Below, one piece after another: positions 15,680 through 63,962 of a stretch of 64,000 nt of DNA. Source of the stretch: Diogma glabrata (taxonomy: Eukaryota > Arthropoda > Insecta > Diptera > Cylindrotomidae); NCBI GenBank assembly GCA_963693315.1, contig OY856186.1, positions 287,014,930 to 287,078,929 on the forward strand. The letters run 5' to 3'. Position numbers and translations under genes: made by a program. The number at the start of each line of letters is the position of its first letter. Within the stretch, counting starts at the first letter, position 1. Under the pieces are notes generated by a model. It did not search any database and had not been told where the DNA came from. It was given only the letters and a program-made list of their open reading frames with translations.

Positions 15680-17369
15680 CTGTTGAAGGTCGAGCAATTA
15701 ATCTTTTGGGAAAAATCAAGGTCACTGTAAAGTATGGAGAGCATTGTTATGCATTGGAACTTATCATTATCAGAGCATTAAAACCTTTTCGACCATTAAT
15801 TGGAAGGAATTGGCTTGATGTTTTACAACACAATTGGCAAGATGAGTTATTACCGCTATGCAAAAGAAAGTTTGGTTCTAATCGAGAATCAAACGATATA
15901 CAACGCGAACAAATACAATACTATATACAACAGGAACAACAACAACAAAATTCACAACTATTATTTGATAAAAACATTTTTGAAGGTCAGAATATTGAAA
16001 ATTATTTACGTCAGCTTTTTCCAAAAATTTTTGATAAAGATTTAAGTGAAAATTTTGGATTTTAAGGCTGAAATAATTTTAAATGATCAGGTTAGTCCAA
16101 TATTTTTTAAATCTTATTCAGTGCCATATAAAATAAAAGACAAGGTGAGCAAGAACTAAATCGTCTGGAAAACGAAACAGTTTTAAAACCGGTTAAAACT
16201 TCAAAATGGGCAAGTCCAATCGTTATAGTCCCCAAGCGAAATGGCGATATCCGAATTTGTATAGATTGTCGTGTCACAATTAATAAATATATTGATACTA
16301 GTCATTACCCTTTGCCTCAAATTGAGGATATTTTTGCGAGCCTCGCAAACGCAAAATATTTTTCCGTAATCGATTTGTCTGGTGCGTATCAGCAATTGGC
16401 GGTTGCCGAAGAAAGTCAACAGTATTTAACAATAAATACATACCGCGGTTTATATCAATATACGCGTTTACCGTTTGGAGTTTCAAGTGCTCCAAGTATA
16501 TTTCAGTCAGTCGTCGATCAAATTATATTTGGTATTGAAATGGTATACGGTTATCTTGATGATATTTTAGTTGGAGGCCGAACGGAAGAGGAATGTTTAC
16601 AAAAATTGTTAGAAGTATGTAAACGTTTAAATAAATATAAAGTCAAGATTAATGTCGAAAAATGTAAATTTATACAACCGTCTATCAAGTATCTTGGTCA
16701 TACTTTGTCACAAGATGGTATAAGACCAAATGATGATAAGGTACAAGCAATTATAGAAGCGCCGAGTCCCAAGAACCTTCAAGAATTACAGTCTTACTTA
16801 GGTCTTTTAAACTACTACGCTCGTTTTATTCCAAATCTATCGATGGAATTGCGACCTCTTTATCAGTTATTACGTAAAGACCCAAGTTATGAATGGTCCA
16901 CGGAATGTCAGAATACTTTCGAGAAAAGTAAACAATTAATGTTGAATAATAACTTGTTAGAAATATATGACCCATCTAAACCTATAATTATATCTTCAGA
17001 TGCTAGTCCATACGGGGTAGGTGCGGTTTTATCGCATATTGTGGATGGTCATGAAAAACCTGTCCTATTCGCATCTAGCATGCTTTCAAATGCTGAAAAA
17101 AACTACTCACAATTACACCGAGAGGCGTCAGCTATTATTTTTGCTTTGAAACGTTTCCATAAATATATTTATGGACACAGTTTCAAAATCTATACAGATC
17201 ATCAGGCCTTAAGAGAAATTTTTCACCCTAGGAAAAACACTCCAGCTGTAGCAGCTGCTCGTCTTCAAAGGTGGGCAGTAATTTTATCAGCGTATGAGTA
17301 TGAGTTGGAGTATAGGAAAGGAGCAAAGATGGGGAATGCCGATGCTCTGTCTAGATTACCTGTGTCAGG
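15680..17369 (+). pseudogene. Pol of the degenerate gypsy element: protease tail, RT, RNase H
   Basis: Protease tail at 15680-16065, a frame change near 16060 and another near 16145, then an open RT. The RT has WASPIVIVPKRNGDIRICID near 16210, then GAYQQL, LPFGVSSAP and YLDD (about 16550). An RNase H follows, with SDASPYGVGAVLS near 17000 and TDHQAL near 17197, ending NADALSRLP near 17360. The RT start motif reads CIDC rather than the usual CVDY. The frame then runs without a stop into mariner sequence, giving a chimeric ORF to 18225. No integrase follows, so the copy is dead. Confidence 0.85.
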
Positions 17370-18225
17370 GGTGCATGAGCTAGCTGACATTGTAAAGGTA
17401 GCAAATGGTAGTGTTTTTACCATTTTACACGAATATTTGGGTATGCGAAGGCTCTGTGCAAATTGGCTGCCGCGTGAGCTCACAGTCGCCAAAAAACAAC
17501 AACGAATCGATGCTTCAGAGGAGTCTTTGGCGCTATTAAACCGCAATAAAAGGGAATTCTATCGTAGATATGTGACAATGGATGAGACATGGCTTCACAA
17601 TTACACACCAGAATCCAAAAGACAGTCAGCTGAGTGGACAGCAGTCGACGAACCGAATCCAAAGCGAGCAAAGACGCAACAGTCGGCCGGTAAGGTGATG
17701 GCGTCTGTATTTTGGGATACGAACGGAATAATATTCATCGACTATCTCCAAAAAGGAACCACCATCAACAGCGTGTATTACTATGAACTTTTGGATCGAT
17801 TGAAGGCTGAAATCGCAAAGAAACGGCCACATTTGCAAAAGAAAAAAGTGTTGTTTCACCAAGATAATGCACCGTGTCACAGATCGATGAAAACGATGGC
17901 AAAATTGAATGAATTGGGCTTTGAATTGCTTACCCACCCACCATATTCTCCAGATTTAGCCCCCAGCGACTTTTTCCTGTTTTCAGATCTCAAGAGAATG
18001 CTTGCTGGAAAGAAATTTAAGTCCAATGATGAAGTAATCGCTGAAACTGAGGCCTATTTTGACGAGAAAGAGAAATCGTACAATAAAAGTGGTATAGAAA
18101 AGTTGGAAAATCGCTATACTCGTTGTATCGCCCTCGAAGGCAACTATGTTGAATTAAAAAATCGAGTTTTGTCAAAATGTTGTTTTTTTCTTACTTATCC
18201 TACGGACTTATTGAACGACCTGTAA
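17370..18225 (+). pseudogene. Mariner transposase, catalytic portion fused in frame to gypsy RNase H
   Basis: The frame enters mariner sequence at HELADIVKVANGSVFTILHE, just past the RNase H end, and continues through the whole catalytic domain. The D,D34D-type residues are visible: MDETW near 17578, HQDNAP near 17857 and PDLAPSDFFLF near 17955. The last codons overlap the TIR and the stop is at about 18223. The helix-turn-helix DNA-binding part is not attached but lies inverted downstream. The fusion has no start codon of its own and is probably not a functional transposase. Confidence 0.85.
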
Positions 18226-36498: not shown

Positions 36499-38076
36499 CA
36501 TGGTAAAATGAAAATGAAAATAAGGTATTCTCACTAGAGTGACAGCGATGCCATTTTGATTTTGATTGACGTCACTCGGAGTTTTATATAATACGTTTGT
36601 TGTTATTATCAATGAGAAAAGCTATTGTTTTTAAATTAAAAATATATTTAGTATGATTTATAAATTAATTTATTAGTTAATGAAATGATTGAAATTAATT
36701 CATTCATTAATTAATGAACTTTAGTATTTGTTTTACTATTAAAACATATACAAATTTAAATGCCGAGCTACGTTAAAACCAAAAGTTTTCAACAAATGTG
36801 AAAAATCATACTCAAAACATAAGGTTTTTTAATTTCCAGAAAAATAAATCAATTTGTAGTGGATAGAATCATGTGGAAAAAGAAAATGTTCGTATTTATT
36901 ATAAGATAATTTGTTCCTTACACTTCACTGAAAATGATTGGACTTTAAAAGACAAACTTTTAAATACTCTAATGAGTAAAAGATCGTTGAATTGATCGTG
37001 GAAAGTGGAACCTTATCTTAGAACATACAAGGAAGTGGTTACTTCCAATATTTGCACATATAAAGGAACGGTTTAAAATCGGTTTAAAAACATAAGTCTG
37101 CTTATGAATCGATCGATGCGAAAAGAAAGTACTGGCAATTCTCAAATTATTTGATAATGCAAACTCAGTCATTCTCTCACCATTATCATTGTTGGTGTTG
37201 ATTTCATAACCCCCTCTAGTGCTATGTAGAAAATATTGACGGTCTTAGCTTCAGTAGGTGTATGCAAGGCAATAAGAGAAATATTGTTTTATGTACCGCG
37301 TACCCCTAAGTAGCAAATCCTCTCATTGAACAGGATGAATTTCAACACGGCTTCTTGTATGCGCGCACCAACAAGGAAACCAGTACTAAATTCATTTCGA
37401 GAAGAATGACCACTACTGCATAAAGAGTGACTATTCGAGTTTTGTTTTCCGATTATTGGCTGTCTAATTTCTTGCAGAGAAATGATATCCATCCTATGCC
37501 TCTCAGTTTCTGTTTCTAGGCTTATTAAAGCATCATGAGCGATCAGGCTGCACACGTTTCACGTTCCGATTCGGTAGTTTGGTTCTTTCTCACGTCCAGG
37601 TAAAACTTCTGTTGTTTTGTTAGTGTCTGGTATTCTTTTTTTGGTTATCAAATTTAACAAAGCTTTTTTTTCGTAGTGATGGTATTAACCTCAGTCCCAA
37701 CCCAAATTTTCGTTAATGGTTCTGTTATGATGTTAAGGTTATAAGAAGTTTTAAGGCGCCAATTCGCGGTGATGTAGCGTAATAGACTAAGCAGTTTTTC
37801 TCTGCTTGTCTCCGATACACCAACCTAATTCTGTCTGCATTACCCCTGCAGCATGGCGTGGACGTCGAATTTCCTACCCTGTAAAATGTTCTTTAGAGTT
37901 AGAAAACTTAATAAACAAATTGTTAATGAAAAAAATAAGGAAAACCATAACGTAAAAACTATGTTTTCTCTAATTTTCAAATTAAAACATTTTTTGTTTC
38001 TTTATATTTACGCCGGATGACGTCACACAAAATTTTCGTTTAGCTGCCAAGAATACCTTATATTCGTTATACCATG
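36499..38076 (-). mobile_element. CATGGTA TIR element, copy 1 (1578 bp, 9-bp TSD)
   Basis: Imperfect TIRs start CATGGTA and include ATAAGGTATTCT. They are flanked by GGTATGACA (36490-36498) and GGCATGACA (38077-38085), a 9-bp target duplication with one difference. It is the inverted counterpart of 39813-41384. A 9-bp duplication is seen with Mutator-like and a few other superfamilies; no transposase is present to decide. Confidence 0.82.
36965..37620 (-). pseudogene. Retroelement endonuclease fragment inside copy 1
   Basis: The minus strand encodes NVCSLIAHDALISLE, then RHRMDIISLQEIRQP, GFLVGARIQEAVLKF and RICYLGVRG, and after a break NLRIASTFFSHRSIHK with a final IGSNHFLVCSKIRF. This is the order of an endonuclease/exonuclease/phosphatase domain of non-LTR (craniofacial-development-protein-2-like) type. 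Stops interrupt it, including one in the GTWN motif. The same fragment is in copy 2. Confidence 0.75.
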
Positions 38077-39812: not shown

Positions 39813-41384
39813 CATGGTATAACGAATATAAGGTATTCTTGACAGCTAAACGAAAATTTTGAGTGACGTCATCCGGCGTAAATATAAAGAAACAAAAAAT
39901 GTTTTAATTTGAAAATTAGAGAAAACATAATTTTTACGTTATGGTTTTCCTTGTTTTTTTCATTAACAATTTGTTTATTAAGTTTTCTAACTCTAAAGAA
40001 CATTTTGCAGGGTAGGAAATTCGACGTCCACGCCATGCTGCAGGGGTAATGCAGACAGAATTAGGTTGGTGTATCGGAGACAAGCAGAGAAAAACTGCTT
40101 AGTCTATTACGCTACATCACCGCGAATTAGCGCCTTAAAACTTCTTATAACCTTAACATCATAACAGAACCATTAACGAAAATTTGGGTTGGGACTGACG
40201 TTAATACCATCACTCCGAAAAAAAAGCTTTGTTAAATTTGATAACCAAAAAAAGAATACCAGACACTAACAAAACAACAGAAGTTTTACCTGGACGTGAG
40301 AAAGAACCAAACTACCGAATCGGAACGTGAAACGTGTGCAGCCTGATCGCTCATGATGCTTTAATAAGCCTAGAAACAGAGACTGAGAGGCATAGGATGG
40401 ATATCATTTCTCTGCAAGAAATTAGACAGCCAATAATCGGAAAACAAAACTCGAATAGTCACTCTTTATGCAGTAGTGGTCATTCTTCTCGAAATGAATT
40501 TAGTACTGGTTTCCTTGTTGGTGCACGCATACAAGAAGCCGTGTTGAAATTCATCCTGGTCAATGAGAGGATTTGCTACTTAGGGGTACGCGGTACATAA
40601 AACAATATTTCTCTTATTGCCTTGCATGCACCTACTGAAGCTAAGACCGTCAATATTTTCTACATAGCACTAGAGGATGTTATGAAATCAACACCAACAA
40701 TGATAATGATGAGAGAATGCCTGAGTATGCATTATCAAATAATTTGAGAATTGCCAGTACTTTCTTTTCGCATCGATCGATTCATAAGTAGACTTATGTT
40801 TTTAAACCGATTTTAAACCGTTCCTTTATATGTGCAAATATTGGAAGTAACCACTTCCTTGTATGTTCTAAGATAAGGTTCTACTTTCAACGATCAATTC
40901 AACGATCTTTTACTCATTAGAGTATTTAAAAGTTTGTCTTTTAAAGTCCAATCATTTTCAGTGAAGTGTAAGGAACAAACTATCTTATAATAAATACGAA
41001 CATTTTCTTTTTCCACATGATTCTATCCACTACAAATTGATTTATTTTTCTGGAAATTAAAAAACCTTATGTTTTGAGTATGATTTTTCACATTTGTTGA
41101 AAACTTTTGATTTTAACGTAGTTCGGCATTTAAATTTGTATATGTTTTAATAGTAAAACAAATACTAAAGTTCATTAATTAATGAATGAATTAATTTCAA
41201 TCATTTCATTAACTAATAAATTAATTTATAAATCATACTAAATATATTTTTAATTTAAAAACAATAGCTTTTCTCATTCATTCATTCAACAAACGTATTA
41301 TTTAAAACTCTGAGTGACGTCAATCAAAATCAAAATGGCATCGCTGTCACTCTAGTGAGAATACCTTATTTTCATTTTACCATG
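39813..41384 (+). mobile_element. CATGGTA TIR element, copy 2 (1572 bp, perfect 9-bp TSD)
   Basis: It starts CATGGTATAACG and ends TTTTACCATG, flanked by perfect 9-bp duplications ATCACCGAT (39804-39812 and 41385-41393). It is very similar to copy 1 in opposite orientation. Each copy has its own duplication, so these are two transposition events rather than one segmental inversion. Confidence 0.88.
40264..40960 (+). pseudogene. Retroelement endonuclease fragment inside copy 2
   Basis: Same fragment as in copy 1, here on the plus strand: an open 88-aa stretch at 40334-40600 with RHRMDIISLQEIRQP, then ISLIALHAPTEAKTVN near 40607, NLRIASTFFSHRSIHK near 40740 and GSNHFLVCSKIRF near 40845. The TGG of the GTWN motif has become a stop, and a frameshift follows 40600. 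Confidence 0.75.
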
Positions 41385-45412: not shown

Positions 45413-45600
45413 AGGTTATTTTTTAATTTTTATAATAATAGAATTATGCTATTTGTATTTTACGTCACATAATTTCTGACGTTCGTACTTTGTATATATA
45501 ATTATAGAGGCGTTGTAGCTCTTTTAGAGAATTTTTGGTATATTTTTAAAACAATTTAAAGTTTACTCCACAAGATGTTAACAAGTAAGTAGTAATGAGC
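45413..45600 (-). promoter_or_regulatory. VARS2 upstream region
   Basis: About 190 bp between the VARS2 start and a MITE. It contains TGACG-type words (TTTACGTCAC near 45460, CTGACGTTCG near 45477), possible CREB/ATF-like sites. No TATA box at a usual distance. The role is inferred from position only. Confidence 0.35.
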
Positions 45601-46030
45601 GTGTTCGGTACAGGTATATGATACAAAAAATCACGTTATTAAACGTCAAAGTTGCTTGCTACTAATTTCACTTCGTTGAATATTACGTCAAACCGGACCG
45701 AACAGCAAAAAAAAGAAAATGTATTTATAAGTCAAACTTTAGACGTTACTTTTATTACAATTAATTTGGTCACAAACGATAAATTTATCCCGAAAACACA
45801 GAACCAAATTTATCAAGAATAGTTATCACAAAAATGTAAGCATAAATAAAACAAAACCAAAAGCGTAAAGAACCAAATAAAATAGTTTTATTGACACCTA
45901 AATTCAAAATATTTTGACATTTAAACGCAAGAAAAAAATTGATTTTTTTCGTGAGAAATGGCCGCGTTTATACTATTTTTAGTACAGAAAAATCATGATT
46001 TTTTTTTATCAGAATGTATGTACCGAACAC
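45601..46030. mobile_element. GTGTTCGGTACA MITE, copy 1 (430 bp)
   Basis: TIRs GTGTTCGGTACA and TGTACCGAACAC. It is a near-identical inverted copy of 50695-51122. No coding capacity and no certain target duplication. Confidence 0.8.
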
Positions 46031-46705
46031 TAGGAATGTTTACAAATACGTTTTTAAAAAATTGCGGGCTCAAAATTTCAAAAAGTGATTTAATTCTTAG
46101 TCGACCGCTCATCAAATCAACACAAAATCACAGAACTCAAAGGAGCAGGCTGATTACCTTCAAATGCTGCTGGTTTAGAGTTAGAGTGATCCCTAGCGGG
46201 ATCCTTTGAAATTTTGGACACAACTACAGACCTATTATATAACTCGAAGAAAATCACGATGTTTTATTCAAAGGTCAGGTTAAATTATCAGTGTTAATTT
46301 GAGAAGCAGATGAATTTCTACGGACAAAAGAACCTTGCCAGCGTTGAAATGGAAATTAGCGCAATATAAATATAAATCCAGGAAATCCACAAGTACAACC
46401 GTTTAAATGACACTACAGAACGATCTACGAAACAAAAAAACTCTACAACAGATGCTAAATTTTTTTTATATTCTTTTATCCTGACCATATTGGTCTCTGT
46501 TCAAAAGCGAGTTATACAAATTGTAAGGGCTCTAAGTTTGATACCGAGTTTCTTTATGTTATGTATGGAGGTGGTGAGTATTGAATTAAACGCTGAACTG
46601 GCTTTCAGATAATAATTATTTATTTTACTTTAATGGTGCTTGCATTTGAAGCTACAATTCAAACTCAACTGAACTAAAAAGAGTTACAATATTTTATAAC
46701 TAAAC
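46031..46705. other. Intergenic DNA
   Basis: No gene recognised. Confidence 0.35.
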
Positions 46706-48325: not shown

Positions 48326-50694
48326 TAGTCGCGTTTTTTCTTCGGACAACTGTCCGGGACAGCGATTGTTTTATTTATATTTTTTCGTTCAAATTAAAAT
48401 TATTTCAATTTTGATTGCATAAATATTAAATATTTATCGTTTATCCATCCATTTTAATTAATCTCTTTAAAATAAATTGGCAAATTAAATTTATTTTTAC
48501 CAGTTCGCAACAAATCTTGTGTTTTATCGAGAGCAGTTCAGAACAGGTGAGGGTAATAAACAATGGGACATTTTTAGTACTATTTTTGAAATTAACACTA
48601 TCTTCATGTATGTTTATTTTTAGATGTCAAAAACATTAAGTATATGTACATACGTATATACGTACAAAACAAAAAATTAAATTTAATCTTCACTTCTGTC
48701 CGGTCTACCGATAAGGTAGGTCGTAATAATTGAACTACAGTAAACCTAAACCATATAGTGTTAAAATATATGTTTTTCTTTAAATTAATTCTTAATTATT
48801 TGATGAATTTGATATTGTAATATTTTAATTGAAAATTGTGTTGTATTTGGCTAATTCCACATATTAATTGTAAAAAATAACATCGGATGGGTAAGATTTT
48901 CATCAATTATATCCACAAGATATTATTCTTCATGCTGTAACCATATTGTCATGGCTATTGTCATCTGAATAATCAAATTCAAGCATCCTGATTTGTATGT
49001 AATCGTGATGTGATTTAAATATTTGACACCACATTGAGAGAATGAATATATGATGGAATTGACATTATTTATATAAAAGGAAATTATTAACTTATCCTGC
49101 CGCATCTTAATCAAAATGGAGATTGTATTCATGTTGAAAACATTTACAAGATGGCGCTTCCGGTATCATCATATCAAACTTAAAAATATGTCATAGGTCT
49201 CAATATAATAAAATATATTGATGATCTTATGCTGAATGTAACCAATAAAAAGTGGAGTGAATACCATTTGTCAAATTTTCGAATTTGATATAATTGGTAA
49301 TACTCCGATTTAAAATCCAAAATTAATAGTTCAATTGGTTCACAATTTGTTAAAAACTGAATAGTAATAACTGAAAATTTACTGAAATTTATAAATGTAC
49401 ATTTTAGATAGTAATAATTTAAAGTAACCTAATTGAATTACAAATATATTTTTGGAAATCATAAAATTATAAATAAAAATATAATCAATAATTACCGAAC
49501 ACATCCAAATAAAGTAATATAATTTATACTAATTATTATAAATAAACAAATATTAGTATACTATTTTTGGATAATACATCACAATATTGTATACATAAGG
49601 ATTGATTTCTTTATGTATTTAAAGTAACCTTTATTTTTAATTTTTGAAATAATATAAAATCATAAAGCAGTTAAAATCAATTTATTTAAATTTTTTGCTT
49701 TAAAACAGTTTTCATTCGAAATGATAGCTAAAATTAATTTAGTTTGAATATTGTGATTGTTTTCAAAACTTTAAAATCTAGCTATTTACATGGATGTTTG
49801 GATTGTATAGATTAACTAATTAATTTACGTCCAGCCAAGACGGTAAAAGGGCTTACTTAAACTAATCAAATTTGATTCAATTATTTATTTATCGACTACA
49901 TCATGAGGTGTTTTGAAAAGATGCGGAATTCTTCCAATAATGTCGGACTGACAGATACAAATCATTTATATGATTTGGTCTTGCGCAGGACGACATTAGA
50001 GGACAAGTTTCGCATCTTTCAAGACAGGTCATCATGATGTAGTTGAACTCGTCCTTCCTAGGACATTTTGATTATATAAAAGCAAAAATCTTTGTTTAGC
50101 CAAACAAATAAAATGGCTTTAATACTATGTTTCTTGAATTGTATAACTTTTATGTGTCCAGCCAAGACTCTAAAAGGGCTTAAAGGTACCCATTCTGGAC
50201 CTAAAAATATCAACATTTGTAATTTTTCTCATGTTAACCGAAGTTAGGATTAAGAAAATTGGTGAGTCTATTCTGTATCTGATGAGGTATTTAGCACAGA
50301 CCTGTCTAATTTTCAGGTACTGTCTTGCTAATGCCAATATTCAGATATAGAAACATGAACCTATTTTCTTCATCCTAACCAAGGGTCCTTCATAAATGTA
50401 AAACATGGCAATATGGACCAGATTCCAGCCAATAAATTAAAAATAAAAAAAAAAAAAAAAAAAAAATTTAATCTTTAATTTAATTTTTTTTTTAGTTCGA
50501 ATCTCGTCGTTTAAATATAAAATATATGGCTCTTCATGAAATAAACAAATATAACACAAGTGTAAACAAACATTAACGGCGATTGTCAAAATATTCACTT
50601 GAAGTTAGCTACAATTTAGTTCTAAAAATCTCCCTGTATTTTACCAATATTTTTCTCTGTCCTGGACAGCCAGTTCGAAGATAAAACGCGACTA
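48326..50694. mobile_element. TAGTCGCG TIR element (2.37 kb)
   Basis: About 37-bp imperfect TIRs: TAGTCGCGTTTTTTCTTCGG with TGTCCGGGACAG at 48326-48362, and CTGTCCTGGACAG through CGCGACTA at 50657-50694. No transposase frame was recognised. The right part contains a poly(A)-tailed insertion. Confidence 0.6.
49829..50466 (+). mobile_element. Possible poly(A)-tailed retroposon with a hairpin
   Basis: It ends in AATAAATTAAAAAT followed by about 22 A (50445-50466), like a polyadenylated RNA copy. GTCCAGCCAAGAC plus TAAAAGGGCTTA occurs twice as direct repeats (49829 and 50156). Between them, 49894-50044 folds into a long imperfect hairpin (GACTACATCATGA against TCATCATGATGTAGTT). No coding frame. 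It could be a SINE, a noncoding RNA copy, or a LINE 3' end. Confidence 0.4.
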
Positions 50695-51122
50695 GTGTTC
50701 GGTACATACATTCTGATAAAAAAAATCATGATTTTTCTGTACCAAAAATAGTATAAACGCGGCCATTTCTCACGAAAAACATCAATTTTTTTCTTGCGTT
50801 TAATGTTAAAATATTTTGAATTTAGGTGTCAATAAAACTATTTTATTTGGTTCTTTACGCTTTTGGTTTTGTTTTATTTATGCTTACATTTTTGTGATAA
50901 CTATTCTTGATAAATTTGGTTCTGTGTTTTCGGGATAAATTTATCGTTTGTGACCAAATTAATTGTAATAAAAGTAACGTCTGAAGTTTGACTTATAAAT
51001 ACATTTTGTGTTTTTGGCTGTTCGGTCCGGTTTGACGTAATATTCAACGAAGTGAAATTAGTAGCAAGCAACTTTGACGTTTAATAACGTGATTTTTTGT
51101 ATCATATACCTGTACCGAACAC
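50695..51122. mobile_element. GTGTTCGGTACA MITE, copy 2 (428 bp)
   Basis: The inverted partner of 45601-46030 with the same TIRs. It abuts the right end of the TAGTCGCG element without a gap. Confidence 0.8.
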
Positions 51123-51145
51123 ACTCATAGTGACATCTAGTTAAT

Positions 51146-57910: not shown

Positions 57911-58429
57911 AAAGTTTTTATTAAATAATAAAGAATCCTACTTGAATTTATATTAGGACTAAACATATTTTAAAGGGAGAGTAGGTAAACGTCCACTTTG
58001 GGGTGAGAACCAAAAAAACCCCTATATTTCACGCATATATAATTGGTCTAGACTTAAATTGAAATAATTGTTTTAATCTTTTGTTATTGTTGTTGTAATT
58101 TGATTATTAGCATTAAATAAGAGTTAGCTTTGGTAATGATATGATTTTTGATTTTTTTTGACCTGGAAAATGTTGTACTTGAGCTAGATAATTGACCCAG
58201 AGACAGTAGACATTAAATCAAGTGGTAGTTAACTAGATAACTGGCATAGCTTGACACTGAAAATATTTAGAATGCTGAAATAAGAGTATACTTATATAAA
58301 AACATGAGATAACGTCGTCTTTTTGAAATGGAAAATTTTAATAAAAGAAAATACTATAAACGTAATTTTTTTAATTTATTTCAGATTTTTTTATTTACAT
58401 ATCCATATATATATATATTTCTTAAAAAT

Positions 58430-58942
58430 TTAATTTGTCAACTTAAAATTTTTATTGGTGCAATCATCTGTTAGTACGATTTCTTCTTCATTGTTTTTGA
58501 AAATGAAGAAGTTCTCTTCCTTCACTAGTGTGGTGTAATCCTCATCATCAAATAATTTTGTGAGTTTTAATGGCATAAAAATTATGTATTTTTCAGTCTC
58601 GAAAACCCACTTTTCTCCAAACTTTGTGAATATTTTTTTCACACCTTTTAAATGATAGAGGTTGTTTATCTCCATCTCTGCTATCTTTAAAAATTGCTTT
58701 GTGAAATTTGTTTTTGTTTCTTTGTTGAATTTTTTCAAAAAAATGTCTTTCCTAGACATAATTTGTTGAGTTTCTGATGATGATGTGTTAAGTTCTTGAT
58801 GGTGTTGTAACTGTTTTTGATTTTGATGTAGTTGTTGTTGTTGAATATGATGAAGTGAAAGTCTTTTTCTCTTCAAAGGTTGCGGCGCCTGACAATTTGT
58901 TGCAATAAATTCATCTAAGAAGGTTCCTGTTGTATTGTCCAT
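58430..58942 (-). CDS. Polinton-associated protein of unknown function, 170 aa (possible OB-fold)
   Basis: ORF with ATG at 58942 and a TATA box 33 nt upstream. The N-terminal third is Gln/His-rich and disordered (a run with QQQQLHQNQKQLQHH). A compact C-terminal domain at about 85-165 follows: a helix (FTKQFLKIAEMEIN), then strands with GVKKIFTKFGEKWVFE, KYIIFMPLKLTKLF and a final ENFFIFKN. The pattern of Thr-Lys-Phe-Gly, then a charged strand, then an aromatic Pro-Leu strand resembles small OB-fold or nucleic-acid-binding domains that I have seen beside polymerase genes in such elements. A role as an ssDNA-binding replication helper is a guess. It lies between the putative element end and the polymerase and is transcribed outwards. 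Confidence 0.6.
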   Translation of the reverse strand: MDNTTGTFLDEFIATNCQAPQPLKRKRLSLHHIQQQQLHQNQKQLQHHQELNTSSSETQQIMSRKDIFLKKFNKETKTNFTKQFLKIAEMEINNLYHLKGVKKIFTKFGEKWVFETEKYIIFMPLKLTKLFDDEDYTTLVKEENFFIFKNNEEEIVLTDDCTNKNFKLTN

Positions 58943-59548: not shown

Positions 59549-62500
59549 TTGACCCCACGCTTAGAAGAGAGTTTTATAATTGAATCACAACAAAACAAAC
59601 ATATAAAACGGTTTAATCTGCATGGGCGTGAAATAAAATTCAAAATTAAACCAGTACCAGCAGATGTAGATCCTGTTATTTGGTTTAAAGAGGCGATTTT
59701 TCAAATTGTTAATCAAGTAACAAAAGATGTGACCCCAAGTGACCAAATTGGTTTAACATTTTGTGGTGAAAGTTTTGAACATCGTGGTCCTGCATGGCTC
59801 AGTTTTCGAACAGCTAGTGAAATAAAGTTTCACCATATTTGGGATATTCTTTCAAAAGTATTTCAAAGTAATTCAGAGGGTGAGTTCACACAAAATTTGC
59901 TATGTAAAGAAGAGGTCTGTTTACAGTTTTCAAATTTCTTTTACAGGTTTAAATACAGATACTTTTTGTATCGCTGTTACATATGTCCGTCTACCATTTG
60001 GAAGAGGTAGGCCAAATAAATTTACCAACTTTATTGAGGAATGTCGACAACGGAAGGGTATAATAGTAATTAAAAACAAAGACAATTTATGTTTACCTCG
60101 TGCACTTGTCGTGTGCATTTCTAAAATCGAAAAAGAGGTAGAATATAAAAAAATTTATTCGGATGCAGGAAAACTCCAAACAATCAGAGCAAAAGCATTA
60201 ACACAAAATGCAGGCGTAATTGTTCCAGCACAAGGCTGTGGAATACATGAGTTAAACCTCTTTCAAAATTATTTAAGAAATTATAAAATTGTCGTATATC
60301 AGTATAACACTAAAGGTCGACAAGTTATATTTGATGGAAATAATATTAACGGGAAAAAACTTAATTTGTTATTTCATGAAAATCATTATAATGTGATTGG
60401 TTCATTGACTGCTGCTTTTTGTACGAAATATTATTGTGAAAGTTCTCATATTCCGTACTATGATAAAAATAATCACCGGTGTTCAGCAACTTGTCCTTGT
60501 TGCCAAAATTCAACACCGTGTTCCAAAAACGTTACAGAACTTTTATGCAATATCTGTAACAGAATGTTTAGAGGAGTAAAATGTTTGGATTTTCATAGAG
60601 CATCCACATCAATTAACACAAAAAGTATTTGTGATAAAATAAAAAAGTGTTCAAATTGTTCAAAAGTTTATAAGACAAATAGACAACATATATGCAACGA
60701 ACATCTTTGTAAAATTTGTCATCTACATGTTCCTGCAGATCATTTATGCTTCATTCAGCAAAATAAAACACAAAAAAAATTTACAAACTGTATATATGTT
60801 TTTTATGATTTGGAAACGAGACATGAAAAAAATATCACTACGAAAATAAGACAACATGAACCAAATTTATGTGTCTTGGAACAACGATGCGATACATGCA
60901 TTGACATCGAATCGTTAGTTTTTTGTCAATCATGTAAATTCAGGCAAAGAATTTTCAACAAAAATAATGTAATCGAAACATTGATGGATTACATAGTAAA
61001 ATTAAAAAAGGAATTCCGAGAAATAATTGTCATTGCTCATAATGGACAATCTTTTGATCATCAATTTATTTTAAATTATATTTTAAATAAAACTAATATT
61101 GAACCAAAACTAATTATGAGAGGCACAAAAATTATTTTGATGCTGATCGATAATGTTAAATTCACCGATTCTCTTAATTATTTTCCGATGGCACTAGCAA
61201 AGCTTCCAAAAGCCTTCAATTTATCCACAGAATTGAAAAAAGGCTTTTTTCCGCATTTGTTTAACAAAGTAAAAAACGAAAACTATATTGGTACTTTGCC
61301 AGCTATGAAGTATTACAACCCAGATGTGATGAAAGAAAGTGAGAGAGTTGAGTTTGTAAAATGGTACGATGAAAATAAAAATTGTGAATTTAATATGTCA
61401 GAGGAAATAATTGAATATTGCAGCAACGATGTGAAAATTTTGACAGAAGCTTGTTTGAGTTTCAGAAAAATATTTTTACAAGAATGTAATGTTGAACCAT
61501 TTTTAGAAGCAACAACAATAGCCTCATCTTGCAACCTTGTGTTCAGAAGAAATTTTCTTCAACCAAATACAATAGGTATCATTCCAAGAAGTGGTTATAG
61601 ATTGGTCGATAATCAATCTAAAATTGCTATACAATGGCTTGTATGGGAACAAGACAGTCGACAAATTAATTTTCAACACGCAGCAAACGGTAGAGAAAAA
61701 CTAATTGGTGGAGTAAAAGTAGATGGTTATTGTGATGAAACTAAAGAAATATTTGAGTTCCATGGTTGTTATTATCATGGACATCCAAAGTGCTTGATCC
61801 ACAAACGGGATACTCCTCTATATGATGACTCTACTGACACTTTAAATCAAAGGTACGAAAGAACGAAAGCTAAAAATGCACATTTAAAATCTCTTGGATA
61901 CACACTGATTGAAATGTGGGAATGTGAGTTTCGTGAGCAGATGAGGAAAAACAAAACAATGCTTTATTTACAAACTCATCCTACAATTTTTACTGCTCCG
62001 CTAAACCCACGAGATGAATTCTATGGTGGACGAACTGGTAACGTTTCTACCTATTACAAAAGTAGAACAGGTGAAAAAATAAAATATGTAGACGTCTGTT
62101 CGTTGTCCCCTTTGGTTTGTAAATACGGTAAATTTCCTATAAAACATCCGAAAGTCCACGTTGGAAACTCGGTTTGCTCCGGTATCGATTTACAAAAAAT
62201 AAATGGACTTATTAAATGTAAAATACTACCACCAGAAAATCTTTTTCATCCAGTTTTACCACTAAAACAAAATAATAAATTGATGTTTACGTTGTGTCAA
62301 AAATGTGGAGATCAAAAAAATCAAAATGAATTTTGCTTACACTCTGACGATGAAAGGGCGTTGTCGGGTACATGGATAATCGATGAAGTCTTAAAAGCCA
62401 TCGAAAAAAATTATATAGTTTTACACATTTATGAAATTTGGGAATACGAAATAGCACAATACGATAAGGTCAACAAAGAAGAAGGATTATTCACTGAAAT

Positions 62501-63410
62501 GATGAATAAATTTATAAAAATTAAGCAAGAAGCTTCAGGTTGGCCGATAAATTACGAAACAGAATCAGAAAAACAAAATTATATTGATTTATTTTTTGAT
62601 ACAGAAACAATTAAACTGGAATATAAAAACATAGTAAACAATCCTGGCTTAAGATCTTTTGCTAAGTTAATTTTAAATTCATTTTGGGGTAAATTTGGTC
62701 AACAAGAAAACCAACAACAAACAGCTATTATAAATCAACCGTTTAAATTAAATGAGTTTTTAACAAATCCTTCAATAGAAGTGTGTCAAATCCTGCCAAT
62801 AAACGAAGAAAATGTAATTGTGAGTTGGCAGTATAAAGATGAAGCAGTAACTTCTCTTCCAACAATTAATGTTTGCATAGCTGCTTATACAACAGCACAA
62901 GCGCGACTTCATCTTTATAGTTATCTTGAAAAGATCGGCAACAGAGTTTTGTATTACGATACTGACTCAATAATTTATGTAAGTCGAAAAGGGGAATACG
63001 ATCCACCTGTAGCGGATTGTATTGGAGACATGACTGATGAACTTCAATGTTACGGGGTTGATAGCTATATAACTGAATTTGTAAGCGGTGGACCAAAAAA
63101 TTATGCTTTTAAAGTATATTCTACCAAGGAAAAATCTGAAAAGGTTATTTGCAAAGTTAAAGGCATTAATTTAAACTATGAAACATCTAAACAGGTGAAC
63201 TTTGAAACAATTAAAAATGCAGTTCTCAATCCTCAAGATTGGGAAAATATTGTAGTGATATCTCAAAATATTACAAGGACAAGAGATCATGAAGTCAATA
63301 CAGTTTCTGCTACAAAAAATTATCAACCAAAATCTGAAAAACGTAGGTTTTTAGAAGATTACAGTTCCGTACCGTACGGGTACAAAAAAATAAATACAAA
63401 TCAAATGTAA
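59549..63410 (+). CDS. polB: Polinton protein-primed DNA polymerase B (one intron)
   Basis: Exon 1 (59549-59879) and exon 2 (59947-63410) are joined across a 67-nt intron (GTGAGT...TTTTACAG), giving about 1264 codons, a normal length. Visible motifs: 3'-5' exonuclease Exo I YDLET (about 60800), Exo II HNGQSFDHQ (61036) and Exo III YCSNDVKIL (61416); an endonuclease-like insert FHGCYYHGHPKC (61757); motif A at 62091, which reads DVCSLSP; motif B LNSFWGKFGQ (62672); and motif C YYDTDS (62952). It replicates the element from a protein primer. The usual Tyr of motif A (steric gate) is Ser (62106-62108). Exon 1 has no in-frame ATG; the nearest (59530) is in another frame that stops at 59581. Either the 5' end is frameshifted or another upstream exon exists. 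A polyadenylation signal follows near 63492. Confidence 0.92.
59880..59946 (+). other. Intron in the polymerase gene
   Basis: Donor GTGAGT at 59880, acceptor TTTTACAG ending 59946, 67 nt. The flanking frames are open only if it is removed, and the conserved N-terminal region of the polymerase family is continuous across it. Confidence 0.8.
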
Positions 63411-63743: not shown

Positions 63744-63962
63744 TTACATGAATCTATTTTTGAATATGATCTCGCGATGAACTTGTGCCAAAATTACAGC
63801 TAAAATTGGTTCAATCTTTTTGATACGTCTTTGAAATCTATTTCTATCACGTGCATATTCTTCATATTTTCCCCGTCGAGCAACTCTATAGGCATAATCC
63901 CATACATACATAACATGAAGGTCTAATTTATTGTTAAATGATACTTTTTTTGTTTTTAACAT
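63744..63962 (-). CDS. PPP1R15/GADD34-like small protein (predicted eIF2-alpha phosphatase adaptor), 72 aa
   Basis: Intact ORF with ATG at 63962 and a following AATAAA. It is almost entirely the conserved core of the PPP1R15 family. A PP1-binding RVxF-type motif, KVSF, lies at 6-9. After a short spacer come VWDYAYRVARRG at about 20-31, YEEYARDRNRFQRRI at about 33-47, and an EPIL tail. In the family, KVxF docks protein phosphatase 1, and the Ala-Arg-x-Gly-x-(Trp)-Glu...Ala-Arg-Asp-Arg-x-Arg-Phe segment engages actin and eIF2-alpha; here the Trp is Tyr. The family removes the phosphate that blocks translation under stress. It lies convergent to polB within the Polinton, so it is probably an element gene captured from a host. 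The full-length stress-sensor region of host PPP1R15 is absent. The match is by eye. Confidence 0.72.
   Translation of the reverse strand: MLKTKKVSFNNKLDLHVMYVWDYAYRVARRGKYEEYARDRNRFQRRIKKIEPILAVILAQVHREIIFKNRFM

What the first reader, a model, noticed from the sequence alone, without database searches (positions are those of the whole stretch)
63744..63962. A Maverick/Polinton appears to encode a minimal PPP1R15/GADD34-type eIF2-alpha phosphatase adaptor
The 72-aa ORF has the two signature blocks of the PPP1R15 family in the right order and spacing: KVSF (PP1 docking), then VWDYAYRVARRG and YEEYARDRNRFQRRI (eIF2-alpha/actin-binding core). Established knowledge: herpesvirus ICP34.5, African swine fever virus DP71L and some poxviruses carry such proteins to undo host translation arrest. 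I know of no report of this gene in a Polinton. Inference: this virus-like element, or the virus form it derives from, would counter the host PERK/GCN2 response. It is intact and sits convergent to the polymerase gene, where an element gene would be.
Basis: partly seen in the sequence, partly recalled or inferred. Interest (0 to 1): 0.9.

Follow-up and report, generated by a model that had tools for sequence, protein, structure and literature searches.

The report
Stress-response phosphatase adaptor inside a Polinton
A virus-like mobile element, present in well over a hundred copies in what is probably a fly genome, carries a small gene related to the animal adaptor that switches protein synthesis back on after stress, and the element likely uses it to keep host cells making its proteins.

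Summary
Confirmed. ORF 63744-63962(-) is an uninterrupted 72-codon gene that passes the Pfam PP1c_bdg cut-off (30.3 vs 26.1 bits). It belongs to a Polinton, not to the host. The element runs from window 57980 to 8,575 bases beyond the window: 14,596 bp, AGT...ACT ends, AGGGAG duplicated outside both, with polymerase, integrase and a double-jelly-roll-like capsid protein. A host-like PPP1R15 core exon lies elsewhere behind a predicted splice acceptor, 50% identical. The gene occurs in at least 150 places (150 scored of 367 candidates) and in three Polinton families; between families dN/dS is 0.18-0.33. Its start overlaps the stop of the neighbouring gene (TAATG) in 15 of 16 copies. Residues reported to contact PP1, actin and eIF2-alpha are kept, but the invariant Trp582 is Tyr. 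Some copies are damaged (7 of 19 read). Likely mechanism, untested: it recruits PP1 and G-actin to dephosphorylate eIF2-alpha, as viral ICP34.5 and DP71L do. Viral PPP1R15s, one from an insect virus, are in print; the paper searches that paired Polintons with this pathway listed none.

The parts
57974..57979 (.). Left copy of the 6-bp target-site duplication, AGGGAG
   Evidence: The same six bases follow the right terminus at L009:8576-8581
57980..58435 (+). Left terminal inverted repeat region of the Polinton, beginning AGTAGG
   Evidence: 57980-58055 pairs with L009:8508-8575 (77%) and 58192-58390 with L009:7993-8202 (79%); the alignment reaches 58435
58430..58942 (-). 170-aa ORF of unknown function beside the left TIR
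   Evidence: no Pfam hit; present in family-A copy L015
59549..63410 (+). Protein-primed-type family B DNA polymerase gene (ORFs 59549-60010 and 59880-63410), predicted intron 59880-59946
   Evidence: DNA_pol_B_2 146 bits vs cut-off 25.8; intron from GTGAGT...TTTTACAG, not tested
63744..63962 (-). PPP1R15-core (R15) gene, 72 aa
63962..64000 (-). 3' end of the neighbouring gene (ORF-E, my label); its stop TAA overlaps the R15 start as TAATG; the gene continues into L009:1-471

Best explanation
Window 63744-63962(-) is an uninterrupted 72-codon gene inside a TIR-bounded 14.6-kb Polinton that matches the PP1-binding core of PPP1R15/GADD34, and its product would likely recruit the host phosphatase PP1 together with G-actin to remove the stress phosphate from eIF2-alpha, so that translation continues for the element. 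Shown: the ORF, its profile match, its place inside the element, its presence in three Polinton families with dN/dS well under 1 between them, and a separate host-like PPP1R15 core exon. Inferred: PP1 docking by K6-V7-S8-F9 and R29; actin contact by F43, R46 and R63; eIF2-alpha contact by R38, D39, R42 and R45; translation as the downstream cistron after ORF-E through the TAATG overlap; and origin by capture of a PPP1R15 core exon, because similarity to the host-like exon starts at V7, exactly where its predicted splice acceptor lies.
For: Pfam cut-off passed, and the profile of 33 relatives finds PPP1R15A/B and DP71L chains. TIRs and target-site duplication on both sides. 8 of 8 family-A copies cut out have the gene between polymerase and ORF-E. 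130 of 150 listed ATPase matches have a listed R15 at 802-1000 bp. Between-family dN/dS 0.18-0.33 and a shuffle test reached in 0, 1 and 0 of 20,000. PP1, actin and eIF2-alpha contact residues kept, by alignment to PPP1R15A and PMC8500838 and PMC4394352 (passages). A 71-aa viral relative, DP71L, does this in cells (PMC5346070, abstract).
Against: Trp582, called invariant and needed for full activity, is Tyr in 18 of 18 readable Polinton copies. 7 of 19 copies read show damage: L021 stops early, in L022, L024 and L025 the core is out of frame with the usual ATG, L028 has lost the RVxF valine, L029 lacks the ATG, L031 has core changes. Within families the substitution ratio is uninformative, up to 1.02 from very few changes. 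Whether the core alone suffices is disputed (PMC8633803, PMC7615683, passages). No expression, binding or activity was tested.
Confidence: 0.74

Rival explanations
1. A PP1 adaptor that has drifted from eIF2-alpha: it still docks PP1 through RVxF and the Arg site but titrates it, or aims it at another host or element protein.
For: The pivot Trp, which the cryo-EM work ties to the substrate-competent pose and whose loss lowers substrate binding, is Tyr in 18 of 18 readable copies.
Against: The residues reported to touch eIF2-alpha (R587, D588, R591, R594) and actin (F592, R595, R612) are kept in the window copy; a change to another aromatic residue may be tolerated.
Confidence: 0.17
2. A captured core exon that rides along as a neutral passenger.
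For: 7 of 19 copies read are damaged; within-family ratios are uninformative.
Against: Between-family dN/dS 0.18-0.33, the shuffle test, and presence beside ORF-E in families A and B and in decayed family C.
Confidence: 0.05
3. The last exon of the host PPP1R15 gene next to or inside a transposon.
For: In mammals the core is a separate exon (PMC4394352, passage).
Against: The ORF lies between TIRs with matching target-site duplications, in at least 150 places, has its own ATG with an in-frame stop four codons upstream, and a host-like exon is elsewhere with no other Polinton protein matching in the 10 kb fetched.
Confidence: 0.01

Closest known systems
African swine fever virus DP71L (71 aa; PDB 9nb9)
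   Same: Stand-alone viral protein reduced to the PPP1R15 core; PP1 recruitment and eIF2-alpha dephosphorylation shown in cells (PMC5346070, abstract). E 2.8e-5 with the window ORF.
   Different: Carried by a large cytoplasmic DNA virus of pigs, not by a Polinton; function here untested.
Insect virus PPP1R15 (coGV-gp036, named in PMC4394352; that it is a granulovirus is recalled)
   Same: A PPP1R15 core in an insect DNA virus.
   Different: Different virus class; its sequence was not compared here.
Herpes simplex virus ICP34.5
   Same: Viral PP1 adaptor acting on eIF2-alpha (PMC8633803, passages).
   Different: Reported to share eIF2-gamma-binding features as well (PMC10998612, passage); these were not looked for here.
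Cellular PPP1R15 (GADD34, CReP, Drosophila PPP1R15)
   Same: The same ~70-residue core; window E 2.4e-7 to PPP1R15A; host-like exon L027 50% identical.
   Different: Cellular proteins are longer; the Polinton gene is one short ORF, and Tyr replaces the pivot Trp.
Polintons/Mavericks of flies
   Same: Capsid protein 80% identical to one from Condylostylus longicornis and 56% to one from Hermetia illucens.
   Different: Whether those elements carry R15 could not be checked here.

Membership tests
PPP1R15 core (Pfam PF10488) | Pfam gathering score | tested here: met
   30.3 vs 26.1 bits; all 7 members of alignment A1 match
PPP1R15 core (Pfam PF10488) | RVxF PP1-docking motif and Arg-site arginine | tested here: met
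   K6-V-S-F9 and R29 in the window copy (alignment; sites from PMC4394352). L028 has lost the valine.
PPP1R15 core (Pfam PF10488) | Actin- and eIF2-alpha-facing helix residues | tested here: met
   R38, D39, R42, F43, R45, R46, R63 correspond to R587, D588, R591, F592, R594, R595, R612 of PPP1R15A
PPP1R15 core (Pfam PF10488) | Trp called invariant (human Trp582) | tested here: not met
   Tyr in 18 of 18 readable Polinton copies; Trp in the host-like exon L027 and in P0001. So it is homologous to the family core, and I file it as a variant, not as a proven eIF2-alpha phosphatase subunit.
PPP1R15 core (Pfam PF10488) | PP1/G-actin binding and eIF2-alpha dephosphorylation | not testable with these tools
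   needs a bench assay
Polinton/Maverick | Family B DNA polymerase of viral type | tested here: met
   PF03175 146 vs 25.8 bits
Polinton/Maverick | Retroviral-type integrase | tested here: met
   PF00665 52.5 vs 32.6 bits; chromodomain 19.9, under its 25.1
Polinton/Maverick | Double jelly-roll capsid protein | tested here: met
   Model pLDDT 79.7; best PDB matches Sputnik 8.0e-15 and mavirus 1.5e-14, TM 0.5-0.6
Polinton/Maverick | TIRs and 6-bp target-site duplication | tested here: met
   (that these are typical of Polintons is recalled)
Polinton/Maverick | Adenovirus-type protease and packaging ATPase | tested here: inconclusive
   PF00770 16.5 vs 21.3 bits; Adeno_IVa2 20 vs 21 bits: both just under their cut-offs

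The most novel reading that the evidence does not exclude
Polintons of this lineage behave as viruses that disarm the host's translation arrest. Their PPP1R15 is a swappable counter-defence cassette: it keeps ORF-E as neighbour while the polymerase sits at opposite ends in families A and B, and A, B and C carry R15s of similar divergence although the ATPases of A and C are only 36% identical. It is translated by stop-start coupling (TAATG) and has Tyr in place of the pivot Trp, a natural variant of the eIF2-alpha phosphatase adaptor.
Probability: 0.4. Interest if true: 0.86.

Novelty: new variant of a known kind. Interest (0 to 1): 0.72.

Why it matters
Whether animal Polintons still live as viruses is an open question. 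A stress-kinase antagonist kept under purifying constraint across three Polinton families is what a virus facing translational shut-off would keep, and what a purely vertical transposon would have little use for. The question becomes testable with one 72-residue protein. It also puts the PPP1R15 core into a further class of carrier, with a natural change at the residue that positions the substrate-binding arm.

Tried and rejected
Host last exon: rejected. Neutral passenger: disfavoured. Relatives in IMG/VR: none in four scans, with the ORF, the polymerase, A1 and A3. PHROGs: no hit for R15. The R15 structure model (pLDDT 74.6, pTM 0.35) was not sent to a fold search: small and of low confidence. 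The gene's source was not resolved: the Polinton R15s form one group (99/94, 97/94), but their relation to the host-like exon is open (AU p 0.364). One search used 33 rows; I left out P0019 and P0025-P0030 (long or partial). In one search the R15 list was all 150 rows plus 30 rows; family-C-type and repeated rows were left out, and all lists are capped, so 130 of 150 is a lower bound. A first TIR comparison printed no alignment because of its scoring; one search replaced it.

I first took R15 to lie between polymerase and ORF-E in every family. The check shows that this holds for family A only; the report says so now.

Papers: ten searches. Those pairing Polinton terms with PPP1R15, PP1, eIF2 or the stress response listed no paper on both; two searches listed 20 of 1,349 and 20 of 65. 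The library holds only open-licence PMC papers. Seen as passages: PMC4394352, PMC8500838, PMC8633803, PMC10998612, PMC7615683, PMC4394351, PMC10743859; abstract and outline: PMC5346070; not held: PMC4500263.

Full report
ORF 63744-63962(-) runs from ATG to TAA and encodes 72 residues. It matches Pfam PP1c_bdg at 30.3 bits, above the curated 26.1, and the PDB sequences of PPP1R15A (E 2.4e-7), PPP1R15B (1.1e-5) and DP71L (2.8e-5). A profile of 33 relatives finds seven chain sequences of these three proteins, E 3.3e-18 to 0.0023.

The element. The 10 kb after the window (L009) encode an integrase (52.5 bits, cut-off 32.6), proteins with matches just under the cut-offs for adenovirus protease and packaging ATPase, and a 433-aa protein whose model is closest to the capsid proteins of Sputnik and mavirus. 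Its nearest named relatives are from the flies Condylostylus longicornis (80%) and Hermetia illucens (56%), so the host is probably a fly; nothing else identifies it. The element begins AGTAGG at window 57980 and ends CCTACT at L009:8575; AGGGAG stands outside both ends; the length is 14,596 bp. R15 starts 5.8 kb from the left end and 8.6 kb from the right, between the polymerase gene and ORF-E (my label; no Pfam hit).

Copies. The search of the window's own 1.33-Gb assembly scored 150 of 367 candidates: nine are 99-100% identical (family A), 141 are 76-79% identical, and one of 150 has a stop inside. Four of those 141 were fetched (L011-L014) and are family B. A Pfam-model search scored 150 of 316, all above the cut-off. 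The eight loci cut out, all family A, each have ORF-E on one side and the polymerase on the other. Of 150 listed ATPase matches (575 candidates), 130 have a listed R15 at 802-1000 bp and 20 do not.

Family B is arranged differently. In the eight B loci fetched (L011-L014, L022, L024, L025, L028) R15 keeps ORF-E as neighbour, but on its other side the sequence shared between copies ends after about 0.77 kb (not counting an insertion in L013), so R15 stands near an end of the element. No polymerase was found beside it; where the stretch reaches that far, polymerase pieces lie next to the integrase (L012, L014). The constant unit is therefore ORF-E with R15.

Family C was met in nine fetched loci (L018-L021, L023, L026, L029-L031). 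Its R15 is 68-74% identical to the window's, whereas its ATPase is 35-36% and its p176-like ORF 26-55% identical where found. These elements look decayed. DNA similarity to family A near the gene is confined to about 260 bases covering R15, apart from one 51-base stretch.

Exchange. Synonymous divergence of R15 is about the same for A-B (0.60-0.72) and A-C (0.62-0.74), although the A and B capsid proteins and ATPases are about 90% and 79% identical and the ATPases of A and C only 36%. I infer that R15 moved between Polinton families after they split; two captures from one source are not excluded.

Selection. NG86 dN/dS is 0.18 (window-L011), 0.27-0.33 (window-C) and 0.21-0.26 (B-C); within families there are too few changes (ratios up to 1.02), and the second estimator failed for several pairs. 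Placing the observed base changes at random among sites of the same base 20,000 times reached the observed identity without a stop in 0 (A-B), 1 (A-C) and 0 (B-C) trials. Against this, 7 of 19 copies read are damaged: L021 stops early, in L022, L024 and L025 the core is out of frame with the usual ATG, L028 has lost the RVxF valine, L029 lacks the ATG, L031 has changes inside the core. Several of these were fetched because they looked atypical.

Not the host gene. A search with P0006, a host-like relative, put one distinct locus on top: an exon at C4:285884033-285884239(-) preceded by tttattag, starting at the Val of RVxF and ending with the core. It is 50% identical to the window ORF over 66 residues, and no other Polinton protein matches in the 10 kb fetched. 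Its upstream exons were not traced. PMC4394352 says that the core is a separate exon in the mammalian genes (passage). The Polinton gene looks like such an exon plus six residues that supply the start and the Lys of KVSF; capture is an inference.

Gene arrangement. In 15 of 16 A and B copies the stop of ORF-E and the usual R15 start overlap as TAATG; in L012 the ORF-E frame is shifted. The same overlap joins p110 and the protease gene, and ATGA joins p126 and p257, so R15 is packed like the element's own genes. Coupled termination-reinitiation is a prediction; the likeness to viral TAATG junctions is recalled.

Mechanism. Window residue n corresponds to human PPP1R15A n+549 (alignment, anchored on F592 and R595). 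Kept are V556, F558, R578, R587, D588, R591, F592, R594, R595 and R612; their roles come from PMC4394352 and PMC8500838 (passages), R578 by my transfer from the mouse and PPP1R15B numbers. Not kept is Trp582, called invariant there, whose mutation lowered catalysis and substrate binding: it is Tyr in 18 of 18 readable Polinton copies and Trp in the host-like exon and P0001. Another aromatic residue may still serve, so I keep eIF2-alpha dephosphorylation as most likely and a retargeted PP1 adaptor as main rival. PMC4394352 and PMC8500838 hold that core plus G-actin suffices; PMC8633803 and PMC7615683 argue for a further substrate-binding region (passages). DP71L, 71 aa, acts in cells (PMC5346070, abstract), so small size is no bar. 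Family B has ISAVL near where DP71L needs LSAVL; the window has ILAVI.

Relatives elsewhere. A profile search found 30 proteins among 148 candidates: some 70-77-aa stand-alone ORFs, some that look like host exons, one named from Cotesia congregata. Their carriers are unknown.

Novelty. Viral PPP1R15s are established, one of them listed as from an insect virus. The searches that paired Polintons with this pathway listed no paper on both. This is a new carrier and a sequence variant of a known viral strategy.

Noticed in passing
L009:572-1174 (beyond the window): The ATPase ORF of the window's copy is about 24 codons shorter than in five other family-A copies (200 aligned to 224), and in L001/L015 it is split.
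   Followed up: partly
window 59880-59946: Probable 67-base intron (GTGAGT...TTTTACAG) in the polymerase gene; the frames of the two ORFs join across it by arithmetic.
   Followed up: partly
window 45595-46033 and 50692-51128: Long inverted repeat, arms about 435 bases and 95-100% complementary, round 4.7 kb without a large ORF: another mobile element.
   Followed up: no
window 58430-58942: 170-aa ORF beside the left TIR, divergent from the polymerase; no Pfam hit, weak PHROG match.
   Followed up: no
C3:56098540(-)/56107888(+) and C3:270790952(-)/270803305(+): Pairs of R15 copies 9-12 kb apart in opposite orientation; L014 shows parts of two elements abutting.
   Followed up: partly
window 16312-18225: One ORF runs from retrotransposon polymerase into what looks like a mariner transposase (recalled resemblance).
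   Followed up: no
window 37289-37555(-) and 40334-40600(+): Two nearly identical 88-aa ORFs on opposite strands, 3 kb apart.
   Followed up: no
proteins P0004, P0005, P0008-P0011, P0013, P0016: A tight group of R15 proteins from jgi/ena sources, several of 70-72 aa; carrier unknown, possibly other insect viruses.
   Followed up: partly
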